Below the pieces are notes generated by a model. That model did not search any database. It was not told where the DNA came from and saw only the letters and a program-made list of their open reading frames with translations. From Hansfordia pulvinata (taxonomy: Eukaryota; Ascomycota; Sordariomycetes; Xylariales): a DNA stretch of 64,000 nt. Below are positions 1 through 57,185 of this stretch, one piece after another; within the stretch, counting starts at the first letter, position 1; each line of letters begins with the position of its first letter. The DNA lies in the NCBI GenBank assembly GCA_006538405.1, contig BJKQ01000037.1, positions 35,431-99,430 of the forward strand. Reading direction: 5' to 3'. Both the position numbers and the translations under genes were made by a program.

Positions 1-2662
1 AAAAGTTGGAGTAAATGGAGCACAGTTTATTACATCTTTAAGTGTAATAGTTACTACATTATTAGCAATAACTGCTTTCTTTGAAGTAGGGTTTAATAAT
101 ATTCCTGTTTCAATAGAACTATTTAGATGAATAGATAGTGAATGATTTAATATTACATGAGGTTTTGAATTTGACAGTTTAACTGTTGCTATGTTAATAC
201 CTGTATTAATAATAAGTTCTTTAGTTCATATTTATTCTATTAGTTACATGAGTAACGATCCTCATGTGCAAAGGTTTTTTAGTTATTTAAGTTTATTCAC
301 TTTTATGATGATTATATTAGTAACTGCAAATAATTACTTATTAATGTTTGTAGGTTGAGAAGGTGTAGGAGTTTGTTCTTACCTTTTAGTTAGTTTCTGA
401 TTCACTAGAATTGCTGCTAACCAAAGTTCTCTTTCTGCTTTTTTAACTAACAGAGTAGGTGATTGTTTCTTAACTGTAGGTATGTTTGCTATATTATGAT
501 CTTTAGGTAATTTAAATTATGCTACTGTATTTTCATTAGCTCCTTACATCAACGAAAATGTAATAACTGTTATAGGTATATGTTTATTAATAGGTGCTAT
601 GGCTAAAAGTTCTCAAGTGGGTCTTCACATATGACTACCTATGGCGATTAATTTCTAGTCGCAGACGACAAACATAAAAGTAATTTTTGTCGTAGGGTAT
701 CACTATTAAAGTATAGCAAGGATTAAACCATATATACAAATATAAGTAGAGATTCCCAACTAAAGTGAAAACGGTCAAAATATTTGTACTTAATACAAGA
801 CCGTCGGCAGTTTAATATGTCGCTACAGACTGGTTCACTTCGGGGTCACTGAAATGTGGCTGAATGTACAGTCGAACATTGAAAATAATTTCATAGATAC
901 AATAAGTATTTTTTTTCACAATTACGTTACTTTAATATTAGTAATAAACCTAATAAAGGAGAGCTTGCTGATCCTTAACCTTAACCTTAACGGAAGGAGA
1001 GTTTACACACGGAGAGTTTACATACGGAGAGGGGGTGAGCTTGCGCCCCCCCCCCACCCAGCCAGAAGAAGTACTCAAACTAATAAACATATTAGTTTCT
1101 GAATCTCCGATTAACGCCACTTAAGGTGGCTGAAACTTGGGCATGTTTACACAGCCCGAGAAAAGAAGTATTGTATTATGTCTAATATAAGAGAACGTAA
1201 ATTGGGAAATAAAAGTGTCTGAAGAATTTATATTAAGAAATCTAGTTTGGATAGTTTTAATAAGTTAATTATACCTTACATGATACCAGATATGTTTAGA
1301 TTACTCATCCTTTGGATGGGTACCCCTAGCTAGCTCCTAATTAGGTTTTACGGGCGCCGTACATAAGAGCTAGTTCTAAATATTCTTAATAATTAAATTT
1401 AATGTCGGGAAGGACCAACTCCAGTTTCAGCTTTAATACACGCCGCTACTATGGTTACCGCGGGTGTGTACTTATTAATCCGTTCATCTCCTTTAATAGA
1501 ATACAGTTCGACTGTATTATTATTATGTTTATGATTAGGTGCTATCACTACTGTATTTAGTTCTTTAGTAGGTTTATTCCAACAAGATATTAAAAAAGTT
1601 ATTGCATACTCTACAATGTCACAACTGGGAATGATGGTTATAGCTATAGGGTTATCTTCATACAATGTAGCTTTATTCCATTTAGTTAATCATGCATTCT
1701 ATAAAGGATTATTATTCTTGGGGGCAGGTGCAGTAATTCACGCTGTAGCGGATAACCAGGATTTCAGAAAATATGGAGGGTTAATATCTTTCTTACCTTT
1801 AACTTATTCTGTTATATTGATAGCTAGTCTAAGTTTAGTAGCTTTCCCTTTCATGACAGGATTCTATAGTAAAGATTTTATACTAGAATCTGCATTTGGT
1901 CAATATTATTTTAGTAGTATAGCTGTATATGTTATAGCAGTAATAGGTGCTATATTCACTACTTTATACTCTGTGAAAGTTTTATATTTAACTTTCTTAA
2001 CTAATCCTAATGGACCTAAAATATATTACAAACATGCGCATGAGGGTGATATATTTTTAAGTTTACCATTAGTTATATTAGCAATCTTTTCTATATTTTT
2101 TGGTTATATAACTAAAGATGTGTTTATAGGTTTAGGTTCAGGATTTTTCATTGATAATAGTATTTTCATACATCCTGCTCACGAGATAATGTTAGATACT
2201 GAATTTGCAGTACCTGTATTATTTAAACTATTACCTTTAATATTCACTATATCATTTAGTGTATTAGCTATTATATTCTCAGAATTTTTACCTGAATCTT
2301 TAATAAGTTTTAAGTTTACTAAATTAGGTTATACTATTTTTGGTTTCTTTAACCAAAGATTTTTAGTTGAAATGTTTTATAATAAATATATCACGAATTT
2401 AATTTTATATTTAGGAGGACAAACTACTAAAGTTTTAGATAAAGGAAGTATAGAATTAATTGGGCCTTTTGGTCTTGAAACTGGTTTAGTTAAACTAAGT
2501 AAAAATATTTCATACTTAAGTACAGGTGTTGTAACAAGTTATGCTTTATATATACTTATGGGTATAGTATTATATTTACTTATAACTTATTTACCTATAC
2601 TAAGTGTAGATTTAGTTATTTTATTTATTATAGTAGGATTTGCTAGTTATACAACTAAGTAG
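1..2662 (+). CDS. nad5: NADH dehydrogenase subunit 5, 5'-partial, two exons
   Basis: Proton-pumping membrane subunit of respiratory complex I. Exon 1 occupies 1-648 (frame starting at base 2, 5' end cut by the window) and exon 2 occupies 1408-2662, joining in phase AT|G to give the conserved [20 protein letters not shown] stretch. Conserved Nad5 blocks seen are [17 protein letters not shown] in exon 1 and the histidine/lysine segment [20 protein letters not shown] in exon 2. Many hydrophobic helices run through both exons. TGA is used for Trp (for example at the conserved LFRWIDSEW), fixing genetic code 4. In the usual ascomycete order nad4L lies just upstream, outside this window. The splice point is placed by protein continuity, so it may be off by a base or two. 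Confidence 0.97.
649..1407 (+). mobile_element. nad5 group I intron without ORF, invaded by repeats
   Basis: The 759-base intron interrupts nad5 between codons for M-A and M-E-G-P. A group I core is visible: a P7-like pair GCTACAGACTGG (about 812-823) and AATGTACAGTCG (about 863-874), preceded by an ACGGTCAAAAT...GACCGTCGG helix. The core closely resembles that of the cob intron here. No endonuclease survives. About 955-1060 holds a compound repeat (GAGCTTGC, CTTAAC hexamers, GGAGAGTTTACACAC units, poly-C). Confidence 0.85.
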
Positions 2663-3607
2663 ATATTCTTTTAAGTGACAGTTTAAATGGGGAGCGGAGG
2701 GTAGGGTGGGCGCAAGCTGGACTACGTCACAGCAAGCTGCCCCCCCGGTAGGGGTACCCCACCCACCACGCAGCCCCCCCTAAGAATTTAGCACATTTCA
2801 CACGAGGGAGCTTACTGATCCAGATGATAAGCGCTGGGGTGGGTACCCCCTCGCCTCCTAAGAATTTAGCCTCTAAGGGCATAAATATATATATTTATAG
2901 CTAACCAATAAATGTTTTGGTTAGCGAATCTCATTAACTTAACGGTAAAGTAAAATACTTAGTGTATTATAATTTTAGTTCAAATCTAAACTGAGATACA
3001 TAAATAGAACAAGAGTTCTCATAATTAGGTATTCTTGTTGTGCTACTAAATTATAGCCCCACCCTCTAATAAATTTATTAATTTGGCTGGCTTATCCTTT
3101 GGTAGGAGAGCTTGCTGTGACTACGTCAAATCAAAGCAAGCTCTTCATGTGTGGCTAAATTCTTAGGGAGAGTGGGCTCCCCCCCCCTGAGAGGGGGGGG
3201 GGTACCCCACCCTCGCATGTTTACACAGAAATATAGCGCTTATCCTCTAGATCAGGAGGGCGGAGCTTGCATGTTTACACTTAAATCCCTCGCATGAGAG
3301 CTTGCTGTATATCCATGTGTGCGGGTAAATCGGAGAAGGAGGCTTCGCACACCAAGCAAGCTCGCCCCCCCTTTCCAAAGGTTAAGGATAAGTAGTCAAA
3401 ACACAGCACTAAAAAAAAATCCCTCCCCTCTGCCAGCTCCCTCCAAAGGTTAAGGATACGCAAGCTCTTATTATGGGGTGGAAGGCGGCCGAGCTTCCCT
3501 AGCCATCATAAAGCTCCGCTCCTAAGAAGAGCGGTTCTGATCTTCTGGATCAGCGAGCTCCGAAATGATGCGCGGGTACCCCCTCGATAATAGTATAGCC
3601 CCGCAGT
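2663..3607. repeat. nad5-GNAT spacer, GC-rich short repeats
   Basis: Apart from the tRNA-like gene at 2928-2998, no gene is seen. The spacer holds GAGCTTGC and GCAAGCTC palindromes, GACTACGTCA units, TAAGAATTTAGC units, and a long poly-C/poly-G/GGTACC hairpin near 3176-3206. Confidence 0.7.
2928..2998 (+). tRNA. tRNA-like gene with apparent UAG anticodon
   Basis: The stretch folds as a cloverleaf: acceptor ATCTCAT with CTGAGAT (six of seven pairs), D stem ACTT/AAGT with GG in the loop, T stem TTTAG/CTAAA around TTCAAAT. The seven-base anticodon loop reads CTTAGTG, giving anticodon TAG, with an unusual T at position 37 and four of five stem pairs. The first 25 bases nearly match the trnK at 22743, so it is probably a diverged duplicate. 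A leucine identity would duplicate trnL(UAG) at 54971. Function is uncertain. Confidence 0.5.
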
Positions 3608-3853
3608 GACTCATAGATTTGTATGAGTCATAAAAATTGATGGCTCATATATTTAAATGCCTCATAGATTGATATGACTCATAGAAATTTATGGCTCATA
3701 GATTGAAATGCCTCATATACTCAAATGCCTCATAGATTGATATGACTCATAGATATTTATGACTCATAGATTGAAATGCCTCATAGATTGATATGACTGA
3801 TAGAAATTTATGACTCATAGATATTTATGACTCATAGATTGAAATGAGTCATT
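3608..3853. repeat. AT-rich minisatellite
   Basis: Tandem units of about 17-20 bases, based on CTCATAGATTGATATGA with variants ending AAATGC or AATTTATG, run for about 245 bases. They are unlike the GC-rich repeats elsewhere and directly precede the nuclear-type gene. Confidence 0.9.
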
Positions 3854-3956
3854 TCGTTTTTTTTTTGTAGGTAGGAGGACTAATTACCTAATAACAAAGA
3901 GCGCTTAATAATCGTTTCGCCCCACCAGAAACATGCACAAATTATAAATAAGACAG

Positions 3957-4078
3957 GTAAGTACCATCCTCAATATGGCTTTTCTATGATTATACACAAC
4001 TTTTCTTCAAATGACCTTGCTTCTTGCCGCATTTGACCTAAAATTTCTAACTTCATCTTACAACTCTTTTTTGTGCAG
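3957..4078 (+). other. Spliceosomal-type intron in the 5' leader of the GNAT gene
   Basis: The sequence has a complete set of nuclear pre-mRNA splice signals: donor CAG|GTAAGT at 3954-3962, branch-like CTAAC at 4047-4051, a pyrimidine-rich tract, and acceptor TGCAG ending at 4078. The predicted length of 122 bases is ordinary for a filamentous-ascomycete nuclear intron. It lies before the likely start codon, so it would be a 5' UTR intron. Mitochondria have no spliceosome, so this reads as a relic of a nuclear gene copied as DNA. Confidence 0.6.
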
Positions 4079-4126
4079 GTGTGCGCAAGCTCTCCTCTCC
4101 TGCTCCTAATATTTACACTTACCAAC

Positions 4127-4759
4127 ATGTCTTCTACTGTTTCAACCACTCGTCCTTTTCTAGGGTGCAACATTCTTGGTATTGTGACCCAACGTTTGAT
4201 CATTCGACCTCTTCTTCTATCAGACCTTCAATCTTTCTACACTATTCGAAGTCAACCCGAAGCTATGGCTCATTCGGGCAGAGGCAGACCCGATGCCAAC
4301 ATCGAGGAGACTAAAGACAAACTTCAACGTCTTCAGTTGCCTTATGAGAATAGGCACGTGTATTTTGGGATTTTTCTCAAAAATTCTGACGGAAGTGAGG
4401 GGTATCTGATCGGTGACGGTGGAGTTCACAAAATGATATCCGAAACCAGCGGATGGCCTGAATTAGGCTACAAGTTTAAGAAGGACTATTGGCATCAGGG
4501 ATACGCTACAGAGTTTCTGAAAGCTTTCCTCAATTTTTGGTGTAATTTGCCCCGTCAGTCTGTCGATATTGGAGTCCATTCGAGTACAGTGGACTATCTT
4601 GTTCAAGGTGAAGGATGTTTACACAGAGAGAGGGTTTGTGCTTGGACTACTAAGGATAATGTGGCTAGTCAGAATGTGTTGGAAAAGGCAGGTTTTGAGC
4701 GATTTCATGGATTAGAGGAGGAGGCTGCTGACTTGATTAATTGGCGATTTGTTTTCTAG
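4127..4759 (+). CDS. GNAT-family N-acetyltransferase, nuclear-type gene
   Basis: The 210-aa product looks like a RimJ/RimL-type (Acetyltransf_3) GCN5-related acetyltransferase, which would transfer acetyl from acetyl-CoA to an amine; the substrate is unknown. Seen: N-terminal strand TQRLIIRPLLLSDLQSFY, central WPELGYKFKKDYWHQGYATE with the Q-x-x-G-x-A acetyl-CoA loop, and the C-terminal DNVASQNVLEKAGFERF typical of the fold. Start chosen at 4127 (context ACCAACATGTC); an upstream in-frame ATG at 4073 would add 18 residues but falls inside the predicted spliceosomal intron. Codons are balanced and C/G-ending, Trp is TGG, and no TGA is used, unlike the AT-rich neighbours. A GGATGTTTACACAG segment near 4613 matches the mitochondrial repeat family and may be a short in-frame insertion. 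The ORF is intact, lies between nad5 and cob, and is probably a nuclear transfer. Confidence 0.85.
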   Translation: MSSTVSTTRPFLGCNILGIVTQRLIIRPLLLSDLQSFYTIRSQPEAMAHSGRGRPDANIEETKDKLQRLQLPYENRHVYFGIFLKNSDGSEGYLIGDGGVHKMISETSGWPELGYKFKKDYWHQGYATEFLKAFLNFWCNLPRQSVDIGVHSSTVDYLVQGEGCLHRERVCAWTTKDNVASQNVLEKAGFERFHGLEEEAADLINWRFVF

Positions 4760-5623
4760 TTGAGGGGGGGGGGGAGGGGCAAGCTCGACTATGTCACAGC
4801 AAGCTACGAAATATAGCGCTTATTCTCTGAATCAGCTAGCTCCCCTCGGAGTTATTGTGTCTGCCTTATCCTTAATCCTAATTTATGGATTACCAAACAC
4901 GCAGGGCGGTACCCCTCTTTTCCCCCCCCCCGTATAATAAGAAAAAAAACCGAGGGTGTAGGTTGCTCGGTACTAGTTTCATGTACACTGTTTTCTTTCC
5001 TTTTGATTATAGTGTCCAATATTGAATAGGAAAGGTGTTTACTTATCCTCTTAAAGACTTTCGTTAAGATCTTTGTTTCTGAAGAGTTTGTCGTAAACAT
5101 GCTTCAGATGACAAAATCTTACTTGTTTTTGATTTAGGATCCTACGGATATGTGTGTAGGGGACATTTCTGGGTACCTAGGAGGATTCAGAGCTTGCTTG
5201 GGGGCATATCCAGAACCTTCGATTAAGGATCAGCAAGCTCTGCCCCCCCCCTTCCCGGATTAGTGTAAACATGCAAGTTTTCCTACCCCCCCCTTACCTT
5301 CCCTCCTCTCAGCTAGCTCTCCTAGGTACCTTTTCGTATTTATCTGACACAAATGTAGCTTTTTTGGCTAAATTTTAGTCGGCTGGATGGATGGGTACCC
5401 CTCCTCTCCCCAGCTGAGATGGAGCTTGCAAGAGAGTGGTACCTTGCGCTCTATATAACCCTACAACATCCTCGTAGGGGCTAGATTACTAATTGTATCC
5501 TCTTATTTTAGGTAGAGGGATTTTTTAGCAAGCTCCGCCTTCATAGAACTGTATACATTATACTTTAGAGTTATTTGAAAATCTCTACTTTACAAGAAAT
5601 TACATTTTTATTTTTAATACTAA
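4760..5623. repeat. GNAT-cob spacer
   Basis: No gene is supported. Both ends hold the common GC repeats: GACTATGTCACAGCAAGCT, GCTTGCTTGGGGGC, CCAGAACCTTCG near 5212 and poly-C tracts. About 4930-5150 is repeat-poor, moderately balanced in composition, and could be 3' flank carried along with the acetyltransferase gene; this is inference. Confidence 0.55.
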
Positions 5624-8270
5624 ATGAGAATATTAAAAAGTCACCCCTTGTTGAAGCTCCTTAATGCCTATTTAATTGATTCATCTGAACCTAGTAATAT
5701 TAGTTACTTGTGAAATTTTGGATCATTGTTAGGTTTATGTCTTGTTATACAAATTGTAACAGGTGTAACATTAGCCATGCATTACAGTCCCAACGTATTA
5801 GAAGCATTTAATTCTGTTGAGCATATTATGAGAGACGTAAATAACGGATGATTAATTCGTTACTTACACAGTAACACTGCTTCTGCTTTCTTCTTCTTAG
5901 TATACTTACACATAGGTAGAGGTATATATTACGGATCTTATAGAGCTCCTAGAACATTAACATGAGCTATTGGTACTGTTATACTTATCTTAATGATGGG
6001 TACAGCTTTCTTGGGTTACGACTATAGCCCAATATGACATAAATATATAAGAGCTTGCGCCTCAACTTATAAAATTAAATTTGTGCGTGCCGAGAACTTT
6101 AAACTTGCGCCTTATTATAACCATCAATTTAAACGTACATTTAGCAGTTCTTCGTGTGTAAACAAGCTTGCGTCTGATAGCTTTAATAATAAAAGTTATG
6201 AGGCTAAATTTATTAGGGAGACCGTTCTAAATGAGTTTTTATTGAATAAAAACTTAAACCCTGTCATGTGTTATGAAAACTTACATCTAGAAGAAACAAA
6301 AAAAAATATAAATGCTTATTCTAAAGGTAGAAGTGGTGTATATTTAATACTTAATAAAAATACATTAGACTATTATGTAGGTTCAGCTTCTACAGATAAA
6401 ATATATTCAAGATTTCATAGACATTTATTGGGTTTTACTGGTAGTAAAATAGTAAAACTTGCAGTAAAAAAGTACAAATTATCGAATTTTTCTTTTATTA
6501 TATTAGAGGAATTTCCTCATATAGTTACTAAAGAAAACAATAAAATGTTGTTAGACCTAGAAGATTTTTATTTAAAAACACTATTGCCTAATTATAATAT
6601 ACTAACTGAAGCAGGTAATTCTTTTGGTTATAAACATACTGAAATAGATCGTATAAAAATGAAAACGAATTACAGTGAAGAACGTAGATTAGCTATAGGT
6701 AATTTAAATAGAGGTAAATCTTTAAGTGAGGAAACTAAGCTAAAAATAAAAGAAAAAGCTTTAAATAGACTACCTAGAACATTTACTACTGAAGCTTTAG
6801 GTAATATGCAAAAAGCAAGCAAACCTATAATACTTTATAATAAAGACGGTACGGTGTATGGTGAGTATTCTTCTATTACATTGGCAAGTTTAGGTTTAAA
6901 TTGCGCCATGAAAACTATTTATAGAGCGTTAAATAGTGAAAGTAAGATGTTAAAAAGACGTTGAATTGTTAAATTTAAAAACTCTTAGTTTTTGAGCGGA
7001 GCTCGGCTAAGTATATATTTATGTTATAGTCCCACGAGTACAAATCTATTTGCAATTTTTATAAAGAAATTTCTCCACTAAGAAGGGCGCGCTTAGCGCT
7101 TTTTAGTTTTTCCTGTTAGTCAAAGACTAAAAAGTAAAAACTGGAGGAGGCAGGTTACACCAGCCTCAGATTAAAGTGGTATATCTTGACAGAGATATAG
7201 AATAATCCCGCGTAAGGTACCTAACCTACGCTTATGATTATTTGGCAATACTAGTGAAAACGGTTAAAATTTTATTGATAGCTTTTAGCTTTAATATGAC
7301 AAGACCGTCGGTTATATAAATGATCGCTACAGACTGGGTCACTGGTGGGTGGCTGAAATGCTGCTTAATGTACAGTCGGAACTATTAATAAAGGAAATAA
7401 CCTCGAGGTTTATTTCTTTATTAACAGAATATGTGAATTCAAAGCTATTCTGGCATTATAATTTATTATAATGTATGTTTGTATGTTCTTCCTTACGGGC
7501 AAATGTCTTTATGAGGTGCTACAGTTATTACTAACTTAATTAGTGCTATACCTTGAATCGGTCAAGATATTGTTGAATTTATCTGAGGAGGTTTCTCAGT
7601 TAATAACGCTACATTAAACAGATTCTTTGCATTACATTTTGTATTACCTTTTGTATTAGCTGCTTTAGTTATAATGCATTTAATAGCTTTCCACGAAACA
7701 GCTGGTTCAAGTAACCCTTTAGGAATATCAGGTAACTATGATAGATTACCTTTTGCTCCTTACTTCGTATTTAAAGATTTAATTACAATCTTTATGTTTA
7801 TGTTTGGATTAAGTTTATTTGTATTCTTTATGCCTAATTACTTAGGAGATTCAGAAAATTACATAATGGCTAACCCTATGCAAACTCCACCTGCTATTGT
7901 ACCTGAATGATATTTATTACCTTTCTATGCAATATTAAGATCTATACCTAACAAATTATTAGGTGTTATCGCTATGTTCTTTGCTATATTAGCTATAATG
8001 TTATTACCTATTACAGATTTAGGTAGATCAAAAGGTTTACAGTTCAGACCTTTAAGTAAAATAGCTTTCTACGTATTTGTAGCTAATTTCTTAGTATTAA
8101 TGCAAATAGGTGCAAAACACGTTGAAACTCCATTTATAGAATTTGGACAATTAAGTACTTTATTATACTTTAGTCATTTTGTATTTATTATACCTGTTCT
8201 TTCTTTAATTGAAAACACATTAGTTGACTTATCTTTTAAAAATCATAAAGATAGTGGTGTTTTTAACTAA
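5624..8270 (+). CDS. cob: Cytochrome b, two exons
   Basis: Central subunit of complex III carrying both b haems and the quinol sites. Exon 1 is 5624-6019 (starting [14 protein letters not shown]) and exon 2 is 7485-8270 (starting [17 protein letters not shown]). Together they give 393 aa, a normal length. Visible hallmarks are haem-ligand histidines in LAMHYSPN and [16 protein letters not shown], the Qo-site PEWY motif (TGA for W), and eight hydrophobic helices. The intron falls inside FLGY|VLPYGQ, a well-known insertion site. The spacer to the next ORF is about 95 bases. Confidence 0.98.
6020..6988 (+). CDS. GIY-YIG homing endonuclease (cob intron ORF)
   Basis: An intron-encoded DNA endonuclease that would spread the intron into uninterrupted cob alleles. 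The frame is open from the end of exon 1, so it may be made as an exon-fused precursor; no early ATG is present. Seen in order: GIY-YIG core [19 protein letters not shown] (near 6330-6390), conserved [21 protein letters not shown]3-like DNA-binding repeats [13 protein letters not shown] and [13 protein letters not shown], and a C-terminal NUMOD1-like segment [14 protein letters not shown] near the end is read as W. No break is visible, so it looks functional. Confidence 0.9.
6020..7484 (+). mobile_element. cob group I intron encoding a GIY-YIG endonuclease
   Basis: The 1465-base intron splits the codon series for FLGY and VLPYG. Its 3' half carries the catalytic core: an AAACGGTTAAAAT...GACCGTCGG helix, GCTACAGACTGG near 7330 and TTAATGTACAGTCGG near 7365 as P7. 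The same core sequence occurs in the nad5 intron, so the two are related. Intron end set by continuity of cytochrome b. Confidence 0.9.
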
Positions 8271-8364
8271 AAACTTAGAGAGTTTTTCATTAGATTGAGG
8301 GAAGTCGGGCGCAAGCTCTGCTCTCCTTAAAAATGAAAAACTCAACTCATTTCTAGTTAATAAG

Positions 8365-11283
8365 ATGGTTATAATAGATTACAAAGCAAACGTGTTCCCC
8401 AGTTGTAGTAACTTATTAGGATATGATAAATATTTCTGACAATTTTTATTTAAACTGTTTGATATTTTTAGTTATCACTTTAAAATATACACAGATAGTG
8501 AAAAATTTGTAGAAAGGTATCCAAGTTTTCATTGAGTTTTTTCTATCAGAACACGTATGTTTATTATAAATGGATTGTTTATTTCTTATGGTGTTTTTTT
8601 GGTTTTAAGTTTAGTTATAAATTTAAGTTATAGTCTTGAAATGGCGGCGCAAGCTCTAAAACACGATTTGATTGGTCAGATCGTGAAGGTATTTAATCTT
8701 TTAGTACCTTCAGAAGGCGTAGGCGAGCTCTACTTGGCTTATTTAATAGAACCTCTTTATATTTTTGTGTGTAAATATGACGCTTTTGTCATGGAAAACG
8801 AGCTTGCTGAATTCCATAACCTCTGCTTCAGGAATTATACAAATGGAGTATCATCCTCAACCTTGACCTTAACCTTACCCTTAACCTTAAGCGAAGGTTC
8901 TGGTTCTGGTTCTGTAGGGGAGCTTGCGCCTACACAGGAAGAGGGGGTGAGCTTGCTTGGTGTGCGAAGCCTCCTTCTCCGATTTACCCACACACACGGA
9001 GAGTTAACACACGGAGAGTTAACACACGGAGAGTTAACACACGGAGAGGGGGTGAGCTTGCGCCCCGGTACACCCGGCTTAGCTAGCTCTTCTTTGACAC
9101 TTTATTATTCAAGCTTGTGTCTAGGTGTATTCGAGAGAATTTTAAATTTTCAAGAAGGAGACCTTGCTGAATTACGGGTAGGAGAGTTTGCTGATCCTCA
9201 ATCGAAGGAGAGGGAGCGAGCTTGCGGAATCTCCGATTTACCCGCACACATGGATATGCCTGGAATTCATGCTCACCCTAATAAACTTGATTGACCTTCT
9301 TTAAAGGGTATAAGAGTAGTACAACCTATCTATTATGATAGTTTACAAGAACTAGGTAGAGTTGATTTAATTAATAATTCTCCTATACTTTCTGAAATAT
9401 ATAAAAGTAGTAGTTCACCTTGAAATTCTTGTGTTATTAAAGGATTATTTGAATCAAATGGTCTAGTGCCTAAAGAAATATTTAGTACAAAGGAGTTTTT
9501 TAGTAACGTGGATACTGATACCGAGTTAGCTTATCCTGAATCTTCGGAGGCCTTTAATTCATATGGACGTAAATCGGAGATTGAGCAAGCTCTGCTAGGG
9601 GTACCCACCCAAAGAGAGCAGAGTTTGCTGATCCAGGAGATAAAGCCTCACATGGAAGCGGGGACTAGTTTTACTCGGGAAGCTAAAATACTTAGGGGTG
9701 GGGAACCTCTCGCTCCTAATACATTGAATTTTGACTATATTTCTGATGTTGAAAGTGTATGTAGTAGTGGGGCTCCATCTATATTTAGCGAAGGCAGTTG
9801 TTCAGGGTTTTCTGATACTTCTAGTTTAATAAATATGGAGAGCATAGCTTGCTGTGACTACGTCGAGCTTGCGCCCCAACCTGATATTAAGCATGGTTCT
9901 TTAAATGGGTTTATTTACTCTGATGAAGGCTCTTTATTTAGGAGCGAAGGGCAGGGTACCCATCGTCACCAGTGCCTGAATCGCTCTCAAAGTTATATTA
10001 TAAATCATCCTTCTGTCTTAAGTTTAAACGAAGTTAGCGCGGTGGAGAGCTTGCGCCACCCTGCTCAGAAAGGAAGTGAACTTGCTGAATTCAGAGTAAC
10101 AGAGTTTGGGCAGCCAGGAATTCAATCCAGTTTTTCTCACCCACTCGAATGAGAGCAGAGCTTGCTGAATCTTTGATTAAAGCCACACATAAAATTCGAA
10201 GTAAACCAAGCAAGCCCTCTTTTTGAGGCTGAAAAATCAGTTTTCTTTAATTCGTTTGATTACGTCACAGCAAGCTCGGAAAGCAAAGCTTGCACCAACC
10301 TCCTAGGTGGTGTAAACTTTACCAAACAAGAAGGCTGCGCTCTAGTTCATCCAAATGGTTCTGCCACTATAAATCCTTCTTTATTTAATAATATTTGGGT
10401 TTTTATGAATAACGAGGATTGAATTAATCCTAATGATTCTGATAATAATAGTTCTTATTCTTATAATAATGATAGTGATAACGAAGATCCTTGGTCAGAG
10501 TTAGCAGGCCATTTTAGTTCTTTATCTGAAGCATTAACAGGATTGCGTCAAGCAAGAACGGATATTCTACTAGATTATAATGAGAGAGCTTCATGAGGTG
10601 TACAACTATTAAATAATGCATATTCTCGTTGAGTTTTTAATGATTTTATCCCAATCATTAGTTTTGTAGAAAATTTGAATTGTTACGGTTCTCTTATGGA
10701 TAGGATGTTGTCTATTATTCAAACATATTCCCTTACTGATGAGGAAATACCTTTCAATCTTTTTTCGGATATGGATTTAGATAATATAGCACCTCAAGTA
10801 CTAGAAAATAGACAAAGAATGACAAGTGCATTAGCGGAATTATATTTTCATATTGAGACCCGTGAACAACTATCGTTAAATTTGGCTAGAGATGTAATTG
10901 CGCGTGATATAAGTGCTCATCTACGTGGATTGATAAATGACACTTCACTTGACTATATATTTGATAAACATTGATCACCTAATATAAGATCAATGATAGA
11001 AAAGTTATTTACTTTTCAAAATGTTATATATAAAGAGTTTGGTAAATTAGATTATCAACTTCAAATGTCTACTGTATTAATACGTGATTTTTTTAATCTA
11101 ATCGAAGAACCTCTTATTAATCCAAATGTACAAGCTAACACTTCTACAGCTTCTAATAATGCTGTCGATCCTACGGTTTCAAATAATGCTCCTACTCCTA
11201 CCGTTTCAGAGGATGCTAGTATTCCTACCACTTCTAATGAAGACAGTACACCTAATGATGCTCGTCCAGGCCCATCTTCTTAA
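8365..11283 (+). CDS. Unknown 972-aa protein with in-frame repeat insertions
   Basis: A single frame stays open for 2919 bases when TGA is read as W. I do not recognise the family. Residues about 60-150 are hydrophobic (FIINGLFISYGVFLVLSLVI, then LYLAYLIEPLYIFVCKY), suggesting one to three membrane helices. The rest is hydrophilic, with Asn/Ser/Asp-rich runs near 10440-10490 and a Thr/Ser/Pro/Asn-rich tail. Several stretches are translations of the genome's mobile repeats: [35 protein letters not shown], and GELAP-type peptides at about 8860-9260, 9580-9720, 9840-9880 and 10030-10290. Between them lies ordinary AT-rich coding sequence, including a conserved-looking block at 10490-11110. It follows cob by 95 bases and precedes trnC. 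Start is the first ATG in frame. Confidence 0.7.
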
Positions 11284-12279
11284 CTTAGATATAATCACCT
11301 AAATAATGGTAATAGTTTAGCTTAAAACTAACTAATATTGAGCAATGGTGCTACTTTATATAAAGTAGGAGGTTCGAGTCTTCCTTGGTATTTTATTACT
11401 TACTTATAAATTTACTCATATATGATATAACTATATAGAGTATGCAAGTAAGCTGTATCGAGTTAAAAAGTTATGTATATAGAGTTTACATCTAAGCTCT
11501 TAGAGTTAAAGAGTTATGTCTATAGAGCTTGCATGTAGGGGGAGGTGTATCAGCCTTCCTCCCCCCCCTCTCAGTATCACAAAAATCCGCCCTGCTGATA
11601 AGAAAGAGCTTGCGCTAAATTATTATAGAGAGCATAGCTTGCTTGGGGGGGGGGTACCCTCCCCCCCTTCTCCGATTAAAGCCCACACAAAAAAGGGAGG
11701 GAGGGTAGGATGACGGTATTTATTTTTACATATAATAATTAAGCAGGCACGTAAAGGAGACTTTACACAAAAAAGTTACAGTTTAAACTTATAGCCGGCT
11801 ATGTTCTTTTGGTTTCTTACATATAATCCATAAAATATGGTTAATTAAAGTATAAAAAAATTTTTTTTTTTTTTCTAATCTTATTTTACATTTTATATAA
11901 CCATATGACATATTTCGAATTAAATAGTTTTTAGGTAAGATAACTTATTTGTTCCGAGCTCGTAATCTTGATAGTTGATACTATGAAGGCAATAAAATCC
12001 GTGGGTTTATGAGAAAAACATAAGCTTGCTTATACTGTATTTCTAGCTTTATAGGCTCTCATGTAAGGCGCTATATTACGGTTTCACTTTTTGGGAGGTT
12101 AAATTTCATGAGAGCAGAGCTTGCGGATCCTTAACCTTAACCTTAACCTTAACCCAAGGTTCTGGTTCTGCTTCTGGTTCTGGATATGCCTCACAAGGGA
12201 GAGATTTTTTAAGAGGGCGAGCTTGCGCACGTTTCACACAAAACACAGCCCATAAGAAGAATAGCCCTACAAAAGGTAA
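11284..12279. repeat. orf972-trnC spacer
   Basis: No gene supported. Contains GAGCTTGC repeats near 11525, 11606 and 11635, a G9/GGTACC/C7 hairpin near 11645-11668, a long A/T homopolymer near 11847-11875, and a compound array at 12112-12190 (CTTAACC hexamers, then GGTTCTGG/GCTTCTGG hexamers). A T-arm-like sequence near 11371 does not complete a tRNA. Confidence 0.65.
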
Positions 12280-12350
12280 AGATTATGAAGTAGTTGGTCT
12301 ACACTTTGATTGCAGATCTTAAGTTTGAGGTTCGATTCCTCCATAATCTT
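12280..12350 (+). tRNA. trnC: tRNA-Cys (GCA)
   Basis: Acceptor AGATTAT pairs with ATAATCT, the T stem GAGG/CCTC encloses TTCGATT, and the anticodon loop contains TTGCAGA. Its position between cob and cox1 is the usual one in Leotiomycetes. Confidence 0.9.
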
Positions 12351-12483
12351 ATAAATATATCGTTCAAATTGACGGCCTCACGTCTAATCGACCCCCTCGC
12401 CTAGTTAAGGCCTAGCTGGATCGGTTTTCTATTTAATTATATAGAACAACAATTCATTATGAGGCGGCTTTAAAACAAAACAT

Positions 12484-21049
<8,566 letters not shown>

Positions 21050-21132
21050 TTCCTCGCCGGGGGGACTCTCTTAGAAAAAAGGTATGGTTAAAAATTACTT
21101 TTTTAGTAGTAACTTCCGTAGGGTTCCTACTA

Positions 21133-22362
21133 ATGAAAAAGTACATTTTGCCTTCCTTAGATGAATTAAATAAATTTAGTCTAAATGAATTCTTGATGAT
21201 GATAAGTTTGTTTGGGTTCGTCGCTTATCTGTTTTATAGTGTAATATGTATTTTAACAGATGTTTTTGCAGATATAAATTTAAAAGATATTTTACTAGGA
21301 GAGTTCAAGATTGTGCGCTCACCACTTAAATCTAAAATACCGGGGTGATTAGATAAAGAACACTTAACATCATCAAAGAATCCTTCTTCAGATAATGAGT
21401 CTAGCTCTAACTCTGGAGATGAAATAGTGAGCAATGATGTAAGTTCAGGTTCAAAGTACGAACCTGATAAAATTAAAGGTAAAGGTAAAGAAATAGTCCA
21501 AACTGAAAGTGAAATATCTAAAGGTAAAGGTAAAGAAGTTGCTAAATCTCAAAGTGAATCACCTAAACGTAAATTATCGGATACTAACCAAGAGTCATCT
21601 GATAGTGAAGGAATCCTAAGCAGACTATCTAAATATGGAAAATGAGGTTTTTCACATGAATACCCTAAAGGGGGTGAATCTTCTGCAACAGGAGCACTTA
21701 GAGAAGAAGCTGCTAGAGAAGCTGCGAAAAATACAGAAAGTCGTAGTGTATCTAAACCTGGAGCACCTGATTTTAGTCATAACAGTTCTCAGTTCATTAG
21801 AAACTCTAATGTAGCAGGTTTCTTAAAAAATCTTCATACGAAAACTAGTATAGAGGATCTAGAAAAAATGAAGACTGAATTGGGTAATCAAAATAAAGAA
21901 TTATGAAAGAATATTGATGACGATAATCCTGACATAGTCGCTCAAAGAATATGAAATGATAGAAAATTGACGGCAGTTCTTAATCAACTTGAAATAAATT
22001 CAAATTTAAATAAAAATAAATTAAATTTAGAGGCTAATTCTGGTTCTCAGGGTGGTCCTGGTTCTCAGGGTGGTCCTGCTTCTCAGGGTGGTCGTGGACC
22101 TTTACCTCCTTTTCCTCCTTCTTCTCCTTCTCATAGTGTTTCTGGCTCAGATTTTGGTTATGATAGCGACGCAGATTTGCAGCTTGCTATAAAAGCATCT
22201 GTAGAAACAGCTGCAAAAGAAGCTGAAGCTAGAAATAATCCTAAAGCAGAAGCTGATCCTCTAGCTAAATTTATAAAAGAAGCTGAAGCTCGATTGGATG
22301 CTCAGATAAAAGCTGATGAAGATAAAACAGACGATGATAAAAAAGGTGGAAGTAAAGGTTAA
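21133..22362 (+). CDS. Unknown 409-aa membrane-anchored, low-complexity protein
   Basis: One frame, TGA as W, directly downstream of cox1. Residues about 15-40 form a hydrophobic helix (FLMMISLFGFVAYLFYSVIC). The rest is hydrophilic: KIKGKGKEIVQ and ISKGKGKEVAK repeats, Ser/Asp/Glu-rich spacers, a GSQGGPGSQGGPASQGG repeat near 22036-22090, and a charged, Ala/Glu/Lys-rich C-terminus likely to be helical. No enzymatic motif is seen. It is almost free of the GC mobile repeats, so selection may be keeping it intact. The layout (N-terminal helix, polar tail) is shared with orf514 and orf972 although no sequence identity is obvious. Confidence 0.7.
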
Positions 22363-22742
22363 TTAAGTAGTAAACCTCAATGCGTTCGGAAAGCTTATCT
22401 AACCGAACTTACAAAGGGAGTCGGGCGCAAGCTCTGCTCTTACCTCCTCTACATATAAGTTCCTCCCTATTTAAGGGGTAAGGAGACCTGTTTATACCTT
22501 CTTAGTTACAGGGAGTGTATACTCTCCTGCTACTAAAACTAAGGATGTTTACACAGACTAAAAAATGTTGAAAGTAGTTTGTTTAACCTTCGTAGGGGGG
22601 GGTACCCCCCCTACGAGGAGGGCTTATGTTGATGATAAGGATTATAAGTCAAACCTGCTCGTTGAATTATGAAAGGGAATTTTAGCTTGCTTTTCTTTCT
22701 AGAAGTCTAAATTCTTTTATATTATGGATTTCACAGTCCTAA
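22363..22742. repeat. orf409-trnK spacer
   Basis: Holds GGGCGCAAGCTCTGCTC, GGATGTTTACACAG and a near-perfect palindrome at 22591-22615 (CGTA, G8, TA, C7, TACG). No gene seen. Confidence 0.65.
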
Positions 22743-22810
22743 TTCTCATTAACTTAAAGGTAGAGTTTAGATTTTTAATCTATATATTAGTTCGAATCTA
22801 GTATGAGAAT
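22743..22810 (+). tRNA. trnK: tRNA-Lys (UUU), first copy
   Basis: Acceptor TTCTCAT pairs fully with ATGAGAA; D arm ACTT-AAAGGTAG-AGT; anticodon loop TTTTTAA with TTT; T arm ATTAG-TTCGAAT-CTAGT. A second, different trnK(UUU) lies at 40690. Its 5' half matches the UAG tRNA-like gene at 2928. Confidence 0.8.
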
Positions 22811-23951
22811 ACTTATAATAAGTAATTTATTCTAAGTTTCTACGAGAGGATGGGCGGAGGGCTAAAATATAGTGGACGGAGCTTTAGCTTGCGCAGCCCA
22901 TAAGAATTATAGCCCTCCGATGAGAGCGGTAGGGTACCCACCCTTGTGAGGCGTATCCTCCGGATCAGCAAGCTCTGCTCTCATGAATTTTAGCCACACT
23001 AATCGTAGATTCCGAAAGGCTGCGAAATTATTAGGGTGGGAGAGGGCGCAAGTTTCGCCACCCTCCGCTCTGCCAACCCTAAGTTAGTTTTATAGTAAAA
23101 TGGCTTTTTAATAGATACGCCGAAAAGTATAAAAGGGGGAGTAGAGACGAGGAGTAAGTTTTAATCTCACTATTTGAGATAAAGGATGTAATTTGCGCCC
23201 TGATTCATAACCTATGCTGTAAGTTCTGTAGAAGGCTTACGTATACCTAGATAAGCTAGCTCACAAAAGGGTGTGTGCTGGGTCCCACCTTCATGTTTAC
23301 ACATGAAAGGCTTTTAAATTTAGCCTCCCTAAAAGTGAAATCGTTATATAGCGAAACCCTCTCCCAGCCTCCTTTATCTCCCTTAGAATATTTATGTTTA
23401 ATTTAAGTCTTGCAACGTGGTATAGGTTATGCGGAGGTTCTAATTTTAATAGCTATAACTTGCTGGATCTTTACTTCTGATCCATAAGAATTATACCCTT
23501 CTTTTTTTAGTGTAGGCTAAATTCTTAGGGAGGGCTGCGCAAGCTAAAGCTCCGCCCACCCTCTCATGCGCAGGTAGGTAGGTGGGGTACTCCTCCCCTC
23601 CCCCTCCGCCCATAAGAATTAGAGCTCCACACAAAAAGGATAAATAGCAAGCTCTCCTTCTCGGATGGCGCTAGTTCGCCTTAAACATGTAATTTTACAT
23701 GTTTACTTATTCAGAAGATGAGAAGTCATTCTATCAGTAGATAAGCTAGCTCACCTGATAAAGTTGTACCTACCAAACTAGTTTTAAATAACTAAGAACG
23801 TTAGAATGAGAGATAGCTTGTTTTGCTCTGCAAGCTATATTTTTTAAGTTTAGCTAACCAAACCTTAACTTGTTCCTCCTTGCTAGTACTAATTATATAA
23901 TATTGTCTTCATTTTTTATGGGAAATATTATTATTTAACAATTAGAAAATT
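22811..23951. repeat. trnK-nad1 spacer, dense GC repeats
   Basis: Over 1.1 kb without a gene. Includes the unit GGATCAGCAAGCTCTGCTCTCATGAATTT near 22956-22988, and a roughly 60-base element near 23513-23580 (TAGGCTAAATTCTTAGGGAGG...GCTCCGCCCACCCTCTCATG) that recurs near 24365-24430 and 45665-45720. Confidence 0.7.
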
Positions 23952-53610: not shown

Positions 53611-54203
53611 AAATATTTATAGTTATAGTTTGCTTGGTGTGTAGGCATTTCTTCTCCGATTCAGCCACCTTGATAATTTAATTATTCTGTGAGCGAGCGG
53701 TTGTTTGTAGGGCTATAATTCTTATGTAGAGGGTGTGCGTATCCAGAACCAGAACCAGAACCAGAACCTTGGGTTAAGGTAAAGGTTAAGGTAAAGGTAA
53801 AGGTGAAGGTTAAGGATCCGCAAGCAGAGCTTGCGGATCCGGAGGATACGCCTCCTTGTGTAGGCTAAATTCTTAGGGAGCTTGCTGATCCGGAGGATAC
53901 ACACCCTCATGAATTTAGCCTAAAGGATAACGTTAATTCCCTTCAGTTTCAGCTGCAATTTAAATCTTTAAGGCTGAAAAAAAACTACCTTCGAAATATG
54001 CGCTAGCTAAGTTTAGATTTTTTAATCTAGCAAAAAAAATTTTTTGGAGTTATAATTCTGTAGATACCTCTATGGAAAGAGGGGGATGAGGGAGGGAAGG
54101 AGCTTAGACCTACCCCTCCCTTAGTTCGTCCTTTTATACTACTCTTTAAAATAAGTAAGCTATTTAAACTTGAACCTTATATTGATTACAAAAATAACAA
54201 TGT
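53611..54203. repeat. trnT-trnM spacer spanning the arm A end
   Basis: 53740-53890 is a compound hexamer array (CCAGAA, GGTTAA, GGATCCGCAAGCAGAGCTTGCGGATCC palindrome, TAAATTCTTAGGGAGC). Arm A ends within the last repeat module at 53921. The rest is AT-rich with no gene. Confidence 0.7.
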
Positions 54204-54274
54204 AGCTTGAAGGGAAAATCGAATCCCCATCTTTATCGCATGAAAATAAGGTTTTACCGTTAAACTATTCAAGC
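54204..54274 (-). tRNA. trnM: tRNA-Met (CAU), third of the cluster
   Basis: On the minus strand, acceptor GCTTGAA pairs with TTCAAGC and the anticodon loop TTCATGC shows CAT. It is the last tRNA of the rnl-downstream cluster (after H). Confidence 0.9.
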
Positions 54275-54502
54275 TTACTTAATAAAAATTAAAAAAAAAA
54301 AAGATAAAGTAATTACTTTATTTTTTTTTAAGTCTATTTATCTTTGAGAAGGGATAAGGGAGAGATAGATGTTTTTTTAAGTTTATACTTAAAAAAAAAG
54401 AGGGGGGGGGAGGGTAAGAAGGTATTCTTACGCCCTTATATAACATATAAAGAGGCGCAAGCCATCTTCTTTCCATAAATAACCCCAACTTAAGTAATGT
54501 AA

Positions 54503-54579
54503 AGGGAAAATACCCTGACTTGAACAGAGAACCTACTGTGCCACATACAGTCGCTCTACCTATTGAGCTATATCTTCCT
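54503..54579 (-). tRNA. trnH: tRNA-His (GUG)
   Basis: Minus strand: anticodon arm ACTGT-ATGTGGC-ACAGT shows GTG; D arm AGCTCAATAGGTAGAGC; T arm CTCTG-TTCAAGT-CAGGG. The acceptor stem is imperfect, so ends are approximate. Confidence 0.87.
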
Positions 54580-54582
54580 TTT

Positions 54583-54651
54583 ATGTTGGAGTGACTCGAA
54601 CACTCAATAGTAAATATCAAAAATTTATGACTTACCCTTTAGTCAACAACA
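54583..54651 (-). tRNA. trnQ: tRNA-Gln (UUG)
   Basis: Minus strand: anticodon arm TAAAT-TTTTGAT-ATTTA shows TTG; acceptor TGTTGTT with AACA; T arm AGTG-TTCGAGT-CACT. Only a few bases from trnH. Confidence 0.9.
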
Positions 54652-54970
54652 TATTGTAAAAAAAAAAATCTTATAATTACGAGCTTACTTTATGTAATAA
54701 CAGGGGGAGGGGGGGGGGGAATCTCCCCCCCCCCCTTCTCCGATTAAAGCCTCATATAAAATCCCTCGCATGAGAGCTTGCAGTGACTACTGACCCTTAA
54801 CCTTTGGAGAGGGGGCTATAATTCTTATGGGGTATAAGAATTATAGCCCCCGCACACATGGATATAAAACACAGCACTAAAAAAAAAATCCCTCCCCTCT
54901 GCCAGCCTTTCCCTCATAAGGATTTCCTTACACAAAATCTCACCGCCTTACGCCTAAATTATATTAATAT
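54652..54970. repeat. trnQ-trnL spacer
   Basis: Poly-G and poly-C tracts near 54703-54737, CATGAGAGCTTGCAGTGACTAC, and mirrored GGGGCTATAATTCTTATGGG/CATAAGAATTATAGCCCC units near 54810-54850. No gene. Confidence 0.6.
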
Positions 54971-55052
54971 TAAAAAGAACAGGACTTGAACCTGCAAATT
55001 TTTCAATAGACAGCCCTAAACTGCCCGTGTTTACCAATTTCACCACCTTTTT
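54971..55052 (-). tRNA. trnL: tRNA-Leu (UAG)
   Basis: Minus strand: acceptor AAAAAGG with TCTTTTT; anticodon arm GGCAG-TTTAGGG-CTGTC shows TAG; type II variable arm; T arm GCAGG-TTCAAGT-CCTGT. Confidence 0.92.
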
Positions 55053-55441
55053 AGTATATATTAAACTAAATAATGCGTAAGTTAAAACTATAAATAATTA
55101 AGTAACTAAACAATATAGCCAACTAATGTAACCATACCTCGCCCCCCCCCCCTTTTTTAGATGTAAACCAGGCATGGAGGGGAAGGAGGGTACCCTCCCC
55201 ACCCTCCAGCACACCTACATGCATAAATATTTCATTTAATTAATTTAAAGGTTGAGAGAAGGGGAGCAGGAGAGCTTGCATGTTTACACTTATCGGAGAA
55301 GGAGAGCTTACGGCGGCTACATCTAGCTTGCTGTGACTACGTCGGCTATGATTCTTAAGGGGGTACCCACCATCGCACCCAAGCAAGCTCTGTATCCTCC
55401 TAGGTACTCTGGTACGTTTTCCTCAACCTTATAATAAAAAA
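55053..55441. repeat. trnL-trnF spacer
   Basis: GC repeats GAGCTTGCATGTTTACAC, GCTTGCTGTGACTACGTC and GGTACCC hairpins. The trnK sometimes found here in relatives is absent; trnK lies elsewhere. Confidence 0.6.
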
Positions 55442-55514
55442 TGCTTAAGACAGGACTTGAACCTGCAGCACGATGGGCTTCAATCATCTACTCTACCAAT
55501 TGAGTTACCTAAGC
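55442..55514 (-). tRNA. trnF: tRNA-Phe (GAA)
   Basis: Minus strand: acceptor GCTTAGG with CTTAAGC; anticodon arm GATGA-TTGAAGC-CCATC shows GAA; T arm CAGG-TTCAAGT-CCTG. Confidence 0.92.
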
Positions 55515-55875
55515 TTATGTATAATTCCGTAAAGGTACTATGGAAAGCTTACTTAAGGGAAAGGTGTGATATTATCAGCCTTTCCCACCCTTTCCTTTCT
55601 TCATATAGATACAATATCAAAAGCAAACTATCTAATATGAAAAAAGGCTCTTAATTAATAACTTCCTTTTGTGTGGGCAGAGGCCGAATAAATAGCAAGC
55701 TCTCCGTTCCATAATTACACCTAAATAAACTTTCGTTTAATATAGAGATTTGGTTTTAGTTATATATATGTAAATTTTGAACATATCGAAAGTGCTAACT
55801 TCCCCCCCCCTCCCCTCCTACCAGTAAACTCACTATTACATGAGCCTAATATAAGCGAACATAAAAATCAAATAT
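55515..55875. other. trnF-trnA spacer
   Basis: AT-rich with a poly-C tract near 55802 and one AATAGCAAGCTCTCC unit; no gene seen. Confidence 0.5.
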
Positions 55876-55946
55876 TGGAGACACCCGAATCGAACAGAGA
55901 TAAGAAACGTGCAACATTCCTGTTTTACCTATTAAACCATGTCCCC
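55876..55946 (-). tRNA. trnA: tRNA-Ala (UGC)
   Basis: Minus strand: acceptor GGGGACA with TGTCTCC; anticodon arm GGAAT-GTTGCAC-GTTTC shows TGC. Confidence 0.9.
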
Positions 55947-56284
55947 TATAAATATAGAAACTTACGCCTTTAAACGCTAAATGACTTAACTCTTTTAAGA
56001 GATACGCCTAGAATCGCCACCGATTAATACTTTAAAAGTTTTTGAGGGCGGCTAAGGGTGTGCGCTCTCTATGTAAACGTGTTCTTACTTTTAAATATAA
56101 ACCTGAGGGATTTTATGTGAGGCGCGGAGGGGGGGGGGGTACCCCCCCCCCTCCTCCGCTCTCATGCAAGCTCGCCCTACTTAAAAAAAAAGGATAAAAT
56201 AGCTGGGTTTTCAGCCACCTATATCCTATTGTAGCTTAACATAAAGGTAGCTTAAGTTACCTTTATATTATAAAAATGTAAATA
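55947..56284. repeat. trnA-trnL spacer with large hairpin
   Basis: Holds a G11/GGTACC/C10-type hairpin at 56127-56157 followed by CTCATGCAAGCTCGCC. No gene seen. Confidence 0.6.
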
Positions 56285-56367
56285 TATCCGAGGGACGACT
56301 TGAACGTCCACGATTATTCATCAACAAAGCTTAAGTTTGCACTGTCTACCTATTCCAGCACTCGGAT
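56285..56367 (-). tRNA. trnL: tRNA-Leu (UAA)
   Basis: Minus strand: acceptor ATCCGAG with CTCGGAT; anticodon loop CTTAAGC shows TAA; long variable arm; T arm GGACG-TTCAAGT-CGTCC. Confidence 0.93.
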
Positions 56368-56756
56368 TTTTTTTTTCTAATTAGGCTAGGACGCTAACTC
56401 TACTTTATACGTGTATAGCAGAGGACATCTCAGGATACCTAGAAGGATACAAAACTTGTTTGGGTGCGATGGTGGGTACCCCCTTAAGAAACATAACCGA
56501 CGTAGTCACAGCAAGCTAGATGTAGCCGCCGCAAGCTCTCCTTCCCCGATAAGTGTAAACATGCAAGTTATCCTGCCCCTTCCCTGACCCTCTTTAAGTA
56601 AGCTTTAATACGGCCAAAACCATATATATAGTAATAACATCAAGTTAAAGTTAAGTAGGCACAAAATATAAAGCAGTAAACTTTAATAGCTTCCTACTAG
56701 TAGAAAAGCTACAATTTACTAATTAAATTATAAAAAAAAAATTTTAGGGGGTTTTT
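56368..56756. repeat. trnL-trnM spacer
   Basis: GACGTAGTCACAGCAAGCTAG, GGTGGGTACCCCC and CATGCAAGTTATCC units near 56470-56590, then AT-rich sequence; no gene seen. It resembles the spacer near 5150-5340. Confidence 0.55.
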
Positions 56757-56829
56757 TAAGGCCAAAGTGACTTGAACACTTATAATTACCGTTATGAGCA
56801 GTACGCTTTACCAATTAAGCTATAGCCTC
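56757..56829 (-). tRNA. trnM: tRNA-Met (CAU), second of the cluster
   Basis: Minus strand: acceptor GAGGCTA with TGGCCTT; anticodon loop CTCATAA shows CAT; D arm GCTTAATTGGTAAAGC; T arm AAGTG-TTCAAGT-CACTT. Confidence 0.92.
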
Positions 56830-57114: not shown

Positions 57115-57184
57115 AGCGGACAAAGGAATTGCACCTTCATCATCTGGGCATGAGCCAAATATGTTAACTATTACACTAATCCGC
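57115..57184 (-). tRNA. trnM: tRNA-Met (CAU), first of the cluster
   Basis: Minus strand: acceptor GCGGA with TCCGC; anticodon arm with loop CTCATGC shows CAT; T arm AAGGTG-CAATTCC-TTT is less regular. Confidence 0.87.
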
Positions 57185-57185
57185 A

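What the first reader, a model, noticed from the sequence alone, without database searches (positions are those of the whole stretch)
3957..4759. Intact nuclear-type acetyltransferase gene, with a spliceosomal intron, inside mtDNA
Seen: a GNAT ORF with G/C-ending codons and TGG-only Trp lies between nad5 and cob, preceded by donor CAG|GTAAGT, branch CTAAC and acceptor TGCAG spaced like a 122-base nuclear intron. Known: mitochondria lack spliceosomes, and fungal mtDNA genes here use AT-rich codons and TGA for Trp. Inference: a nuclear gene was copied as DNA into the mitochondrial genome, the reverse of the usual direction, recently enough that the frame is unbroken. Because no TGA occurs, it could be translated under either code.
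Basis: partly seen in the sequence, partly recalled or inferred. Interest (0 to 1): 0.88.

Follow-up and report, generated by a model that had tools for sequence, protein, structure and literature searches.

The report
Nuclear acetyltransferase gene in fungal mitochondria
The mitochondrial DNA of a fungus carries an intact enzyme gene that was most likely copied in from the cell nucleus long ago, perhaps with a leftover nuclear intron; similar genes are already reported in related fungi, so this is a clear new example rather than a new kind of thing.

Summary
An intact 210-codon GNAT gene (4127-4759, Acetyltransf_3) lies between nad5 and cob on a mitochondrial contig (one turn about 69.85 kb) of an ascomycete whose closest named cox3 match is Pestalotiopsis fici (83%). 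A nuclear relative in the same assembly is its sister in two trees (98/85, 98/93), though two of five other placements tested are not rejected. TGG-only Trp and CGN-rich Arg fit a nuclear origin.

Corrections: the capture is not recent (no near-identical nuclear copy found; environmental kin at 97% and 89%; mt repeat words around it); only 40% of codons end in G/C; and the phenomenon is in print (N-acetyltransferase genes in several ascomycete mtDNAs, proposed to be nuclear-derived). AU tests reject one clade with the P. fici or Hirsutella mitochondrial-series proteins, so separate captures are likely, against one paper's view of vertical descent in Xylariales.

The leader 'intron' (CAG|GTAAGT, CTAAC, CAG|; 122 nt) is probable, not proven: such trios are at chance level in the mtDNA as a whole, but rare in a 266-nt block (0.002-0.007). 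Expression is untested.

The parts
4127..4759 (+). GNAT (Acetyltransf_3) coding sequence, 210 codons plus TAG stop
3957..4078 (+). probable spliceosomal intron relic in the 5' leader (donor GTAAGT 3957, CTAAC 4047, acceptor AG ends 4078)
   Evidence: motif and place only
3862..3956 (+). non-repeated stretch upstream of the donor, possible leader exon and upstream part of the captured segment; true left border not known
   Evidence: no repeat match elsewhere in the mtDNA; inference
4079..4126 (+). leader between acceptor and ATG, holding an mt repeat stretch (4082-4113)
4615..4626 (+). mt repeat word in the coding sequence (ATGTTTACACA, 10 copies elsewhere); same loop in which P0002 has a longer insert
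   Evidence: not a significant BLAST match
4748..4806 (+). mt repeat matches over the last codons and behind the stop: right border of the captured segment
1451..2662 (+). nad5, last part (left neighbour)
5624..6988 (+). cob, first exon running into an intronic GIY-YIG ORF (right neighbour)

Best explanation
A segment of nuclear DNA bearing a GNAT (RimJ/RimL-like N-acetyltransferase) gene, probably with an intron in its 5' leader, was inserted into the nad5-cob spacer of the mtDNA in an ancestor of this fungus and of close environmental kin. The nuclear lineage survives as the C2 gene. Because the intron precedes the ATG, the coding sequence needed no splicing. It has no TGA, the mtDNA encodes tRNA-Arg(ACG) and tRNA-Trp(TCA), and it points the same way as nad5 and cob, so it can be co-transcribed and translated in the mitochondrion. 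Shown: place, intact frame, predicted fold, nuclear relatives in the same assembly, codon features, pattern of differences. Inferred: direction and DNA-level mode of transfer, expression, and acetyl-CoA-dependent acetylation of an unknown amine inside mitochondria.
For: Nuclear relative on a 4.4 Mb contig, sister to the mt clade at 98/85 in a 98-row tree and 98/93 in a 50-row tree, with 7 shared rare residues. TGG-only, CGN-rich codons and GC3 above mt genes. Complete Pfam domain and confident model. Differences to P0001 (5 of 204 columns) and P0002 (18 of 204) fall on variable columns (p 0.0017 and 0.0033). P0002's insert WSGGGVPLP resembles mt repeat peptides: GGVP type 22 in the 69.85 kb mt circle, 2 in 50 kb nuclear. 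tRNAs for CGN and TGG present. Intron trio at a fitting place. The second mt contig C44 has the same order.
Against: Sisterhood to C2 is not airtight: joining the mt clade with P0006 (p-AU 0.371) or P0003+P0007 (0.062) is not rejected; three other placements are. NUC_C2 is long-branched and odd in composition. The intron trio is at chance level in the mtDNA at large; C2's leader has no GTAAGT trio, only a weak candidate (GTGCGC...ACTAAC...CAG, 91 nt). No reads and no RNA. C44 reads C for every A but one, so it is no independent proof. That P0001 and P0002 are mitochondrial is inferred. The permutation test sees only proteins that are open frames, and 3 of the 18 differences lie in the loop insert.
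Confidence: 0.78

Rival explanations
1. The gene came from the nucleus of another fungus (horizontal transfer, for example after hyphal contact), not from this fungus's own nuclear lineage.
For: Placement with P0006 (p-AU 0.371) or P0003+P0007 (0.062), unnamed environmental proteins, is not rejected. GC3 0.40 is well below the own nuclear ORFs measured.
Against: Sister to own C2 in two trees (98/85, 98/93) with 7 shared rare residues.
Confidence: 0.13
2. It is an old mitochondrial nat1 inherited vertically in Xylariales and relatives, captured once long before this lineage arose.
For: nat1 is reported in mtDNA of several Xylariales. The authors of PMC6140425 argue for vertical descent of the P. 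fici and A. stygium transferase genes (passage).
Against: AU tests reject the mt clade with P. fici P0276 (p 0.0006) and with Hirsutella P0058+P0243 (p 0.0007). Nuclear-like codons. Caveats: P0276 is long-branched and its first part looks foreign, and no A. stygium, N. diffusa or D. necatrix protein was identified among the hits and put in the trees.
Confidence: 0.08
3. Assembly chimera: a nuclear or contaminant gene joined to mtDNA only on paper.
For: The contig ends in an inverted chimeric tail, and its sister contig C44 is badly corrupted, so the assembly is error-prone. No reads seen.
Against: The gene is in the once-only middle of C37, both contigs have the same order, mt repeat words lie in its leader and at its 3' end, and no such nuclear copy was found.
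Confidence: 0.05
4. For the intron alone: the donor, branch and acceptor are a coincidence in spacer DNA.
For: Such trios are as frequent as expected in the whole mtDNA; C2 has no clear counterpart.
Against: 0.0024-0.0065 per random 266-nt block; at most 0.00035 with AG before GTAAGT. Own putative introns have similar signals.
Confidence: 0.35

Closest known systems
Mitochondrially encoded N-acetyltransferase genes of ascomycetes (nat1: Dematophora necatrix, Nemania diffusa, Pestalotiopsis fici; Annulohypoxylon stygium; Stemphylium lycopersici orf217; Phialocephala subalpina), subject of Wai et al. 2019
   Same: GNAT ORF in mtDNA, in a spacer or intron; origin from the nuclear genome proposed (passages of PMC11277600, PMC11404375, PMC5626475, PMC6140425; Wai et al. 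not read)
   Different: Not one clade with the P. fici or Hirsutella mitochondrial-series proteins (the others were not in the trees); in the nad5-cob spacer; intact; probable intron relic in its leader
Aminotransferase class-III-like gene 'containing two short introns' in A. stygium mtDNA (PMC6140425, passage)
   Same: Transferase gene in mtDNA of a Xylariales species, described with short introns
   Different: Other enzyme family; introns inside the gene; the passage seen does not say what kind of introns
Nuclear GNAT (Acetyltransf_3) proteins such as Seiridium cupressi P0022 and Xylariales sp. AK1849 P0025
   Same: Same family, 52% and 54% identity
   Different: Encoded on long contigs (0.45 and 4.7 Mb), taken to be nuclear by size

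Membership tests
GNAT, Pfam PF13302 Acetyltransf_3 | profile score over the curated cut-off across the whole domain | tested here: met
   95.1 bits against 25.4, profile 1-138 of 138
GNAT, Pfam PF13302 Acetyltransf_3 | GNAT fold | tested here: met
   model pLDDT 91.5, pTM 0.89; 255 PDB matches at E <= 0.001, the 50 listed being acetyltransferases or, in two rows, an unnamed domain
GNAT, Pfam PF13302 Acetyltransf_3 | binds acetyl-CoA and transfers acetyl | not testable with these tools
   GYATEF stretch kept, columns 125-130 invariant or nearly so; no assay
Nuclear-derived mitochondrial N-acetyltransferase (nat1 kind) | encoded in mtDNA | tested here: met
Nuclear-derived mitochondrial N-acetyltransferase (nat1 kind) | nearest kin of known place is nuclear | tested here: met
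   C2 is sister in 2 of 2 trees; two of five other placements not rejected
Nuclear-derived mitochondrial N-acetyltransferase (nat1 kind) | one clade with the P. fici or Hirsutella mitochondrial-series proteins (would be common descent, not needed for the kind) | tested here: not met
   p-AU 0.0006 and 0.0007; that P0276, P0058 and P0243 are mt-encoded is inferred from names, accession series and PMC6140425
Spliceosomal (U2-type) intron | donor, branch and acceptor consensus at fungal spacing (consensus recalled) | tested here: met
   putative own introns
Spliceosomal (U2-type) intron | counterpart intron in the nuclear relative | tested here: inconclusive
   C2 leader: no GTAAGT; one weak candidate of 91 nt ending 55 nt before the ATG
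Spliceosomal (U2-type) intron | spliced transcript | not testable with these tools
   no RNA data

The most novel reading that the evidence does not exclude
One nuclear GNAT family has been captured by ascomycete mtDNA several separate times (at least this lineage, Hirsutella and Pestalotiopsis). In this lineage the captured copy is kept under selection, tolerates in-frame mt GC-cluster insertions in a loop, and still carries a dead spliceosomal intron in its leader, direct evidence that nuclear DNA rather than a cDNA was taken up.
Probability: 0.45. Interest if true: 0.65.

Novelty: new member of a known kind. Interest (0 to 1): 0.48.

Why it matters
Gene flow normally runs from mitochondrion to nucleus. 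A recognisable nuclear gene moved the other way, still an intact frame and perhaps still with a spliceosomal intron, would show the route (DNA rather than RNA) and give a testable case of a mitochondrion gaining a protein. Repeated capture of one enzyme family would suggest that having this acetyltransferase inside the mitochondrion is useful.

Tried and rejected
Scans of viral contigs with the protein (9 pattern matches) and with the 56-row alignment (84) confirmed no relative. Genome contigs gave 53 loci, all bacterial by title, 24-33% identity, not used further. The plasmid search gave 33 records, all under 60% identity, the 10 listed at 26.6-30.5%, not used further. No eukaryotic DNA from outside this assembly was reached, so the contigs behind P0001-P0012 could not be read and leaders of nuclear relatives in other species were not compared.

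Considered and set aside: assembly chimera (see rivals); a 'recent' transfer; 'G/C-ending codons' as worded. The 75% DNA match on C44 first looked like a diverged second copy; it is the same mtDNA with every A but one read as C, an artefact.

Rows dropped: the 98-row tree used 95 of the 115 proteins plus the mt gene, C2 and C9; 19 were left out by name (short or fragmentary; P0027 among them looks like a chimera of two types) and one more for being under 190 aa. The 50-row tree used 48 chosen proteins plus the mt gene and C2; C9 was not in it. In one search columns with under 20 family residues were left out (204 of 210 used; 53 family rows). In one search five alternative placements were tested; all five are reported. 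Its count of putative own introns comes from many candidates picked by frame; four that I found most intron-like are quoted.

Full report
What is there. The window is bases 35,431-99,430 of contig C37 (99,430 bp) in a 46.8 Mb, 63-contig assembly. C37 repeats itself (1-19,497 against 69,848-89,351 at 99.9%), so one mt turn is about 69.85 kb; its last 10 kb are an inverted copy of an earlier part. The contig is mitochondrial: nad, cox and cob reading frames with TGA codons, rRNAs, tRNAs, group I introns. The closest named cox3 is Pestalotiopsis fici at 83%; two unnamed environmental ones are at 100% and 96%. P. fici is in Amphisphaeriales. No tool names the fungus itself.

The gene. ORF 4127-4759 encodes 210 aa with a complete Acetyltransf_3 domain. 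AlphaFold2 on a 56-row alignment gives pLDDT 91.5 and pTM 0.89. Foldseek's best PDB match is the GNAT enzyme 3fbu_A (E 1.3e-9, TM 0.64 on the query and 0.80 on the target). It is in the spacer between nad5 and cob, same strand.

Nuclear signature. Trp is TGG in 5 of 5, while four mt ORFs (nad5, cox3, cob, nad4; the names are mine) have 1 TGG and 14 TGA. Arg is CGN in 8 of 13, against 2 of 22. GC3 is 0.40, against 0.11-0.18 in those four and up to 0.27 in the other mt ORFs measured, and 0.62-0.85 in the longest ORFs of five nuclear stretches (these were not checked to be genes, and the cob ORF used begins in intron sequence).

Kin. The assembly holds two nuclear relatives, on C2 (4.4 Mb) and C9 (2.5 Mb), each inside one open frame. 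C2 shares 115 identical residues in an alignment that covers 205 of the 210 mt residues, with long insertions in C2. In the large database P0001 is 97% and P0002 89% identical over the full length; the next full-length proteins are at 63% and less. Three fragments lie between: P0027 85% over 53% of the query, P0046 71% over 49%, P0029 70% over 61%. The mt gene, P0001 and P0002 form one clade (100/99 in 98 rows, 100/98 in 50 rows) with C2 as sister (98/85, 98/93). AU tests reject uniting the mt clade with the P. fici protein P0276 (p 0.0006) or the Hirsutella proteins P0058 and P0243 (p 0.0007). Of five other placements, three are rejected (P0003+P0007+P0030 0.0133; P0004+P0005+P0010 0.0342; P0021+P0242 4.9e-6) and two are not (P0006 0.371; P0003+P0007 0.062). 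Own-nucleus origin is favoured, not proven. P0276 is long-branched and, by eye, its first 85 or so residues do not match the family, so its test carries a caveat. That P. fici and Hirsutella are separate captures from each other is read from the tree and was not AU-tested.

Age and upkeep. A DNA search with 3860-4800 finds only the gene itself and C44 (the tool scores only best candidates and skips simple repeats). C44 is a second contig of the same mtDNA in which A is replaced by C (1 A in 64,463 bases), an artefact and no independent proof. Repeat words of the mtDNA lie at 4082-4113 in the leader, over the last codons and behind the stop (4748-4806), and at 4615-4626 in the coding sequence (ATGTTTACACA, 10 copies elsewhere, but no significant BLAST match there). 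In that loop P0002 has a 7-residue longer stretch, WSGGGVPLP. GGVP-type peptides occur 22 times in six frames of the mt circle and 2 times in 50 kb of nuclear DNA, which suggests that P0002 too is mitochondrial. The loop is the least confident part of the model (block means 77 and 74). Differences to P0001 (5) and P0002 (18) lie at variable columns (mean entropy 3.04 and 2.44 against 1.79; permutation p 0.0017 and 0.0033). Three of the 18 are inside the loop insert, and only open frames get into the database, so this is mild evidence of constraint.

The intron. Donor CAG|GTAAGT at 3957, CTAAC at 4047, acceptor ending 4078; length 122, branch to acceptor 28. Four putative introns of this fungus's tubulin and actin genes, the most intron-like of many candidates, use GTAAGT, GTGCGT or GTACGT with CTAAC or CTGAC, 53-137 nt long, 11-28 nt from branch to acceptor (no RNA). 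In the whole mt circle the strict trio is seen 3 and 2 times by strand, 2.7 expected. In a random 266-nt block it is 0.0024-0.0065, at most 0.00035 with AG before GTAAGT, and 0.015-0.045 for a looser motif. C2's leader has no GTAAGT trio but one weak candidate of 91 nt that ends 55 nt before its ATG. I put the intron at about 0.65. It would not need splicing, since it precedes the ATG; an in-frame ATG at 3986 could even extend the protein under the mt code.

How it works, most likely. Insertion of a nuclear DNA segment into the mt spacer; co-transcription with nad5 and cob (inferred from orientation); translation by mt ribosomes, possible because tRNA-Arg(ACG) and tRNA-Trp(TCA) are encoded (that ACG reads CGN is recalled); acetylation of an unknown amine in the mitochondrion (inferred from the fold).

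What is known. All papers were seen as passages only. PMC11277600: N-acetyltransferase genes occur in introns and spacers of fungal mtDNA and may come from the nucleus, citing Wai et al. 2019, which I did not read. PMC11404375: nat1 in D. necatrix, N. diffusa, P. fici. PMC5626475: orf217 in S. lycopersici. PMC6140425: two N-acetyltransferase copies and an aminotransferase 'containing two short introns' in A. stygium, mt N-acetyltransferases of P. subalpina and P. fici, and the authors' view that the Xylariales genes descend vertically, which speaks against repeated capture within that order. PMC10970013, on Neopestalotiopsis and P. fici mtDNA, does not mention nat1 or acetyltransferase in its main text. 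Seven paper searches were made; none lists, by title or start of abstract, a spliceosomal intron relic before a fungal mt gene. The two papers, the search nearest to that question, were not opened.

Verdict. Real, best explained as an old nucleus-to-mitochondrion capture; a new and clear member of a known kind, with two features worth following: the leader intron and the sign of repeated capture.

Noticed in passing
G000 contig C44 (64,463 bp; L010, L014-L020): A second contig of the same mtDNA in which every A but one reads C and runs are shortened: an assembly or polishing artefact that leaves a frame open over the entire contig (21,487 aa).
   Followed up: yes
window 53,732-64,000: The end of the contig is an inverted copy of an earlier part (C37 89,162-99,430 against 12,952-23,224), so rps3, rnl and tRNA genes appear on both strands; likely a chimeric hairpin end.
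   Followed up: partly
window 8224-11283, 18469-20037, 21133-22362: Three long ORFs (1019, 522, 409 aa) with TGA codons; the first has no Pfam match, the other two were not searched.
   Followed up: partly
window 3590-3861: Tandem array with 17-bp spacing, ten registered copies, just upstream of the block with the captured gene.
   Followed up: no
protein P0078: A protein named as from a Rickettsiales MAG groups with Pyrenophora and Periconia GNATs; possibly a misbinned fungal mitochondrial contig.
   Followed up: no
protein P0276 (Pestalotiopsis fici N-acetyl-transferase): By eye its first 85 or so residues do not match the family while the rest does, as if the mt copy there were decaying.
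   Followed up: no
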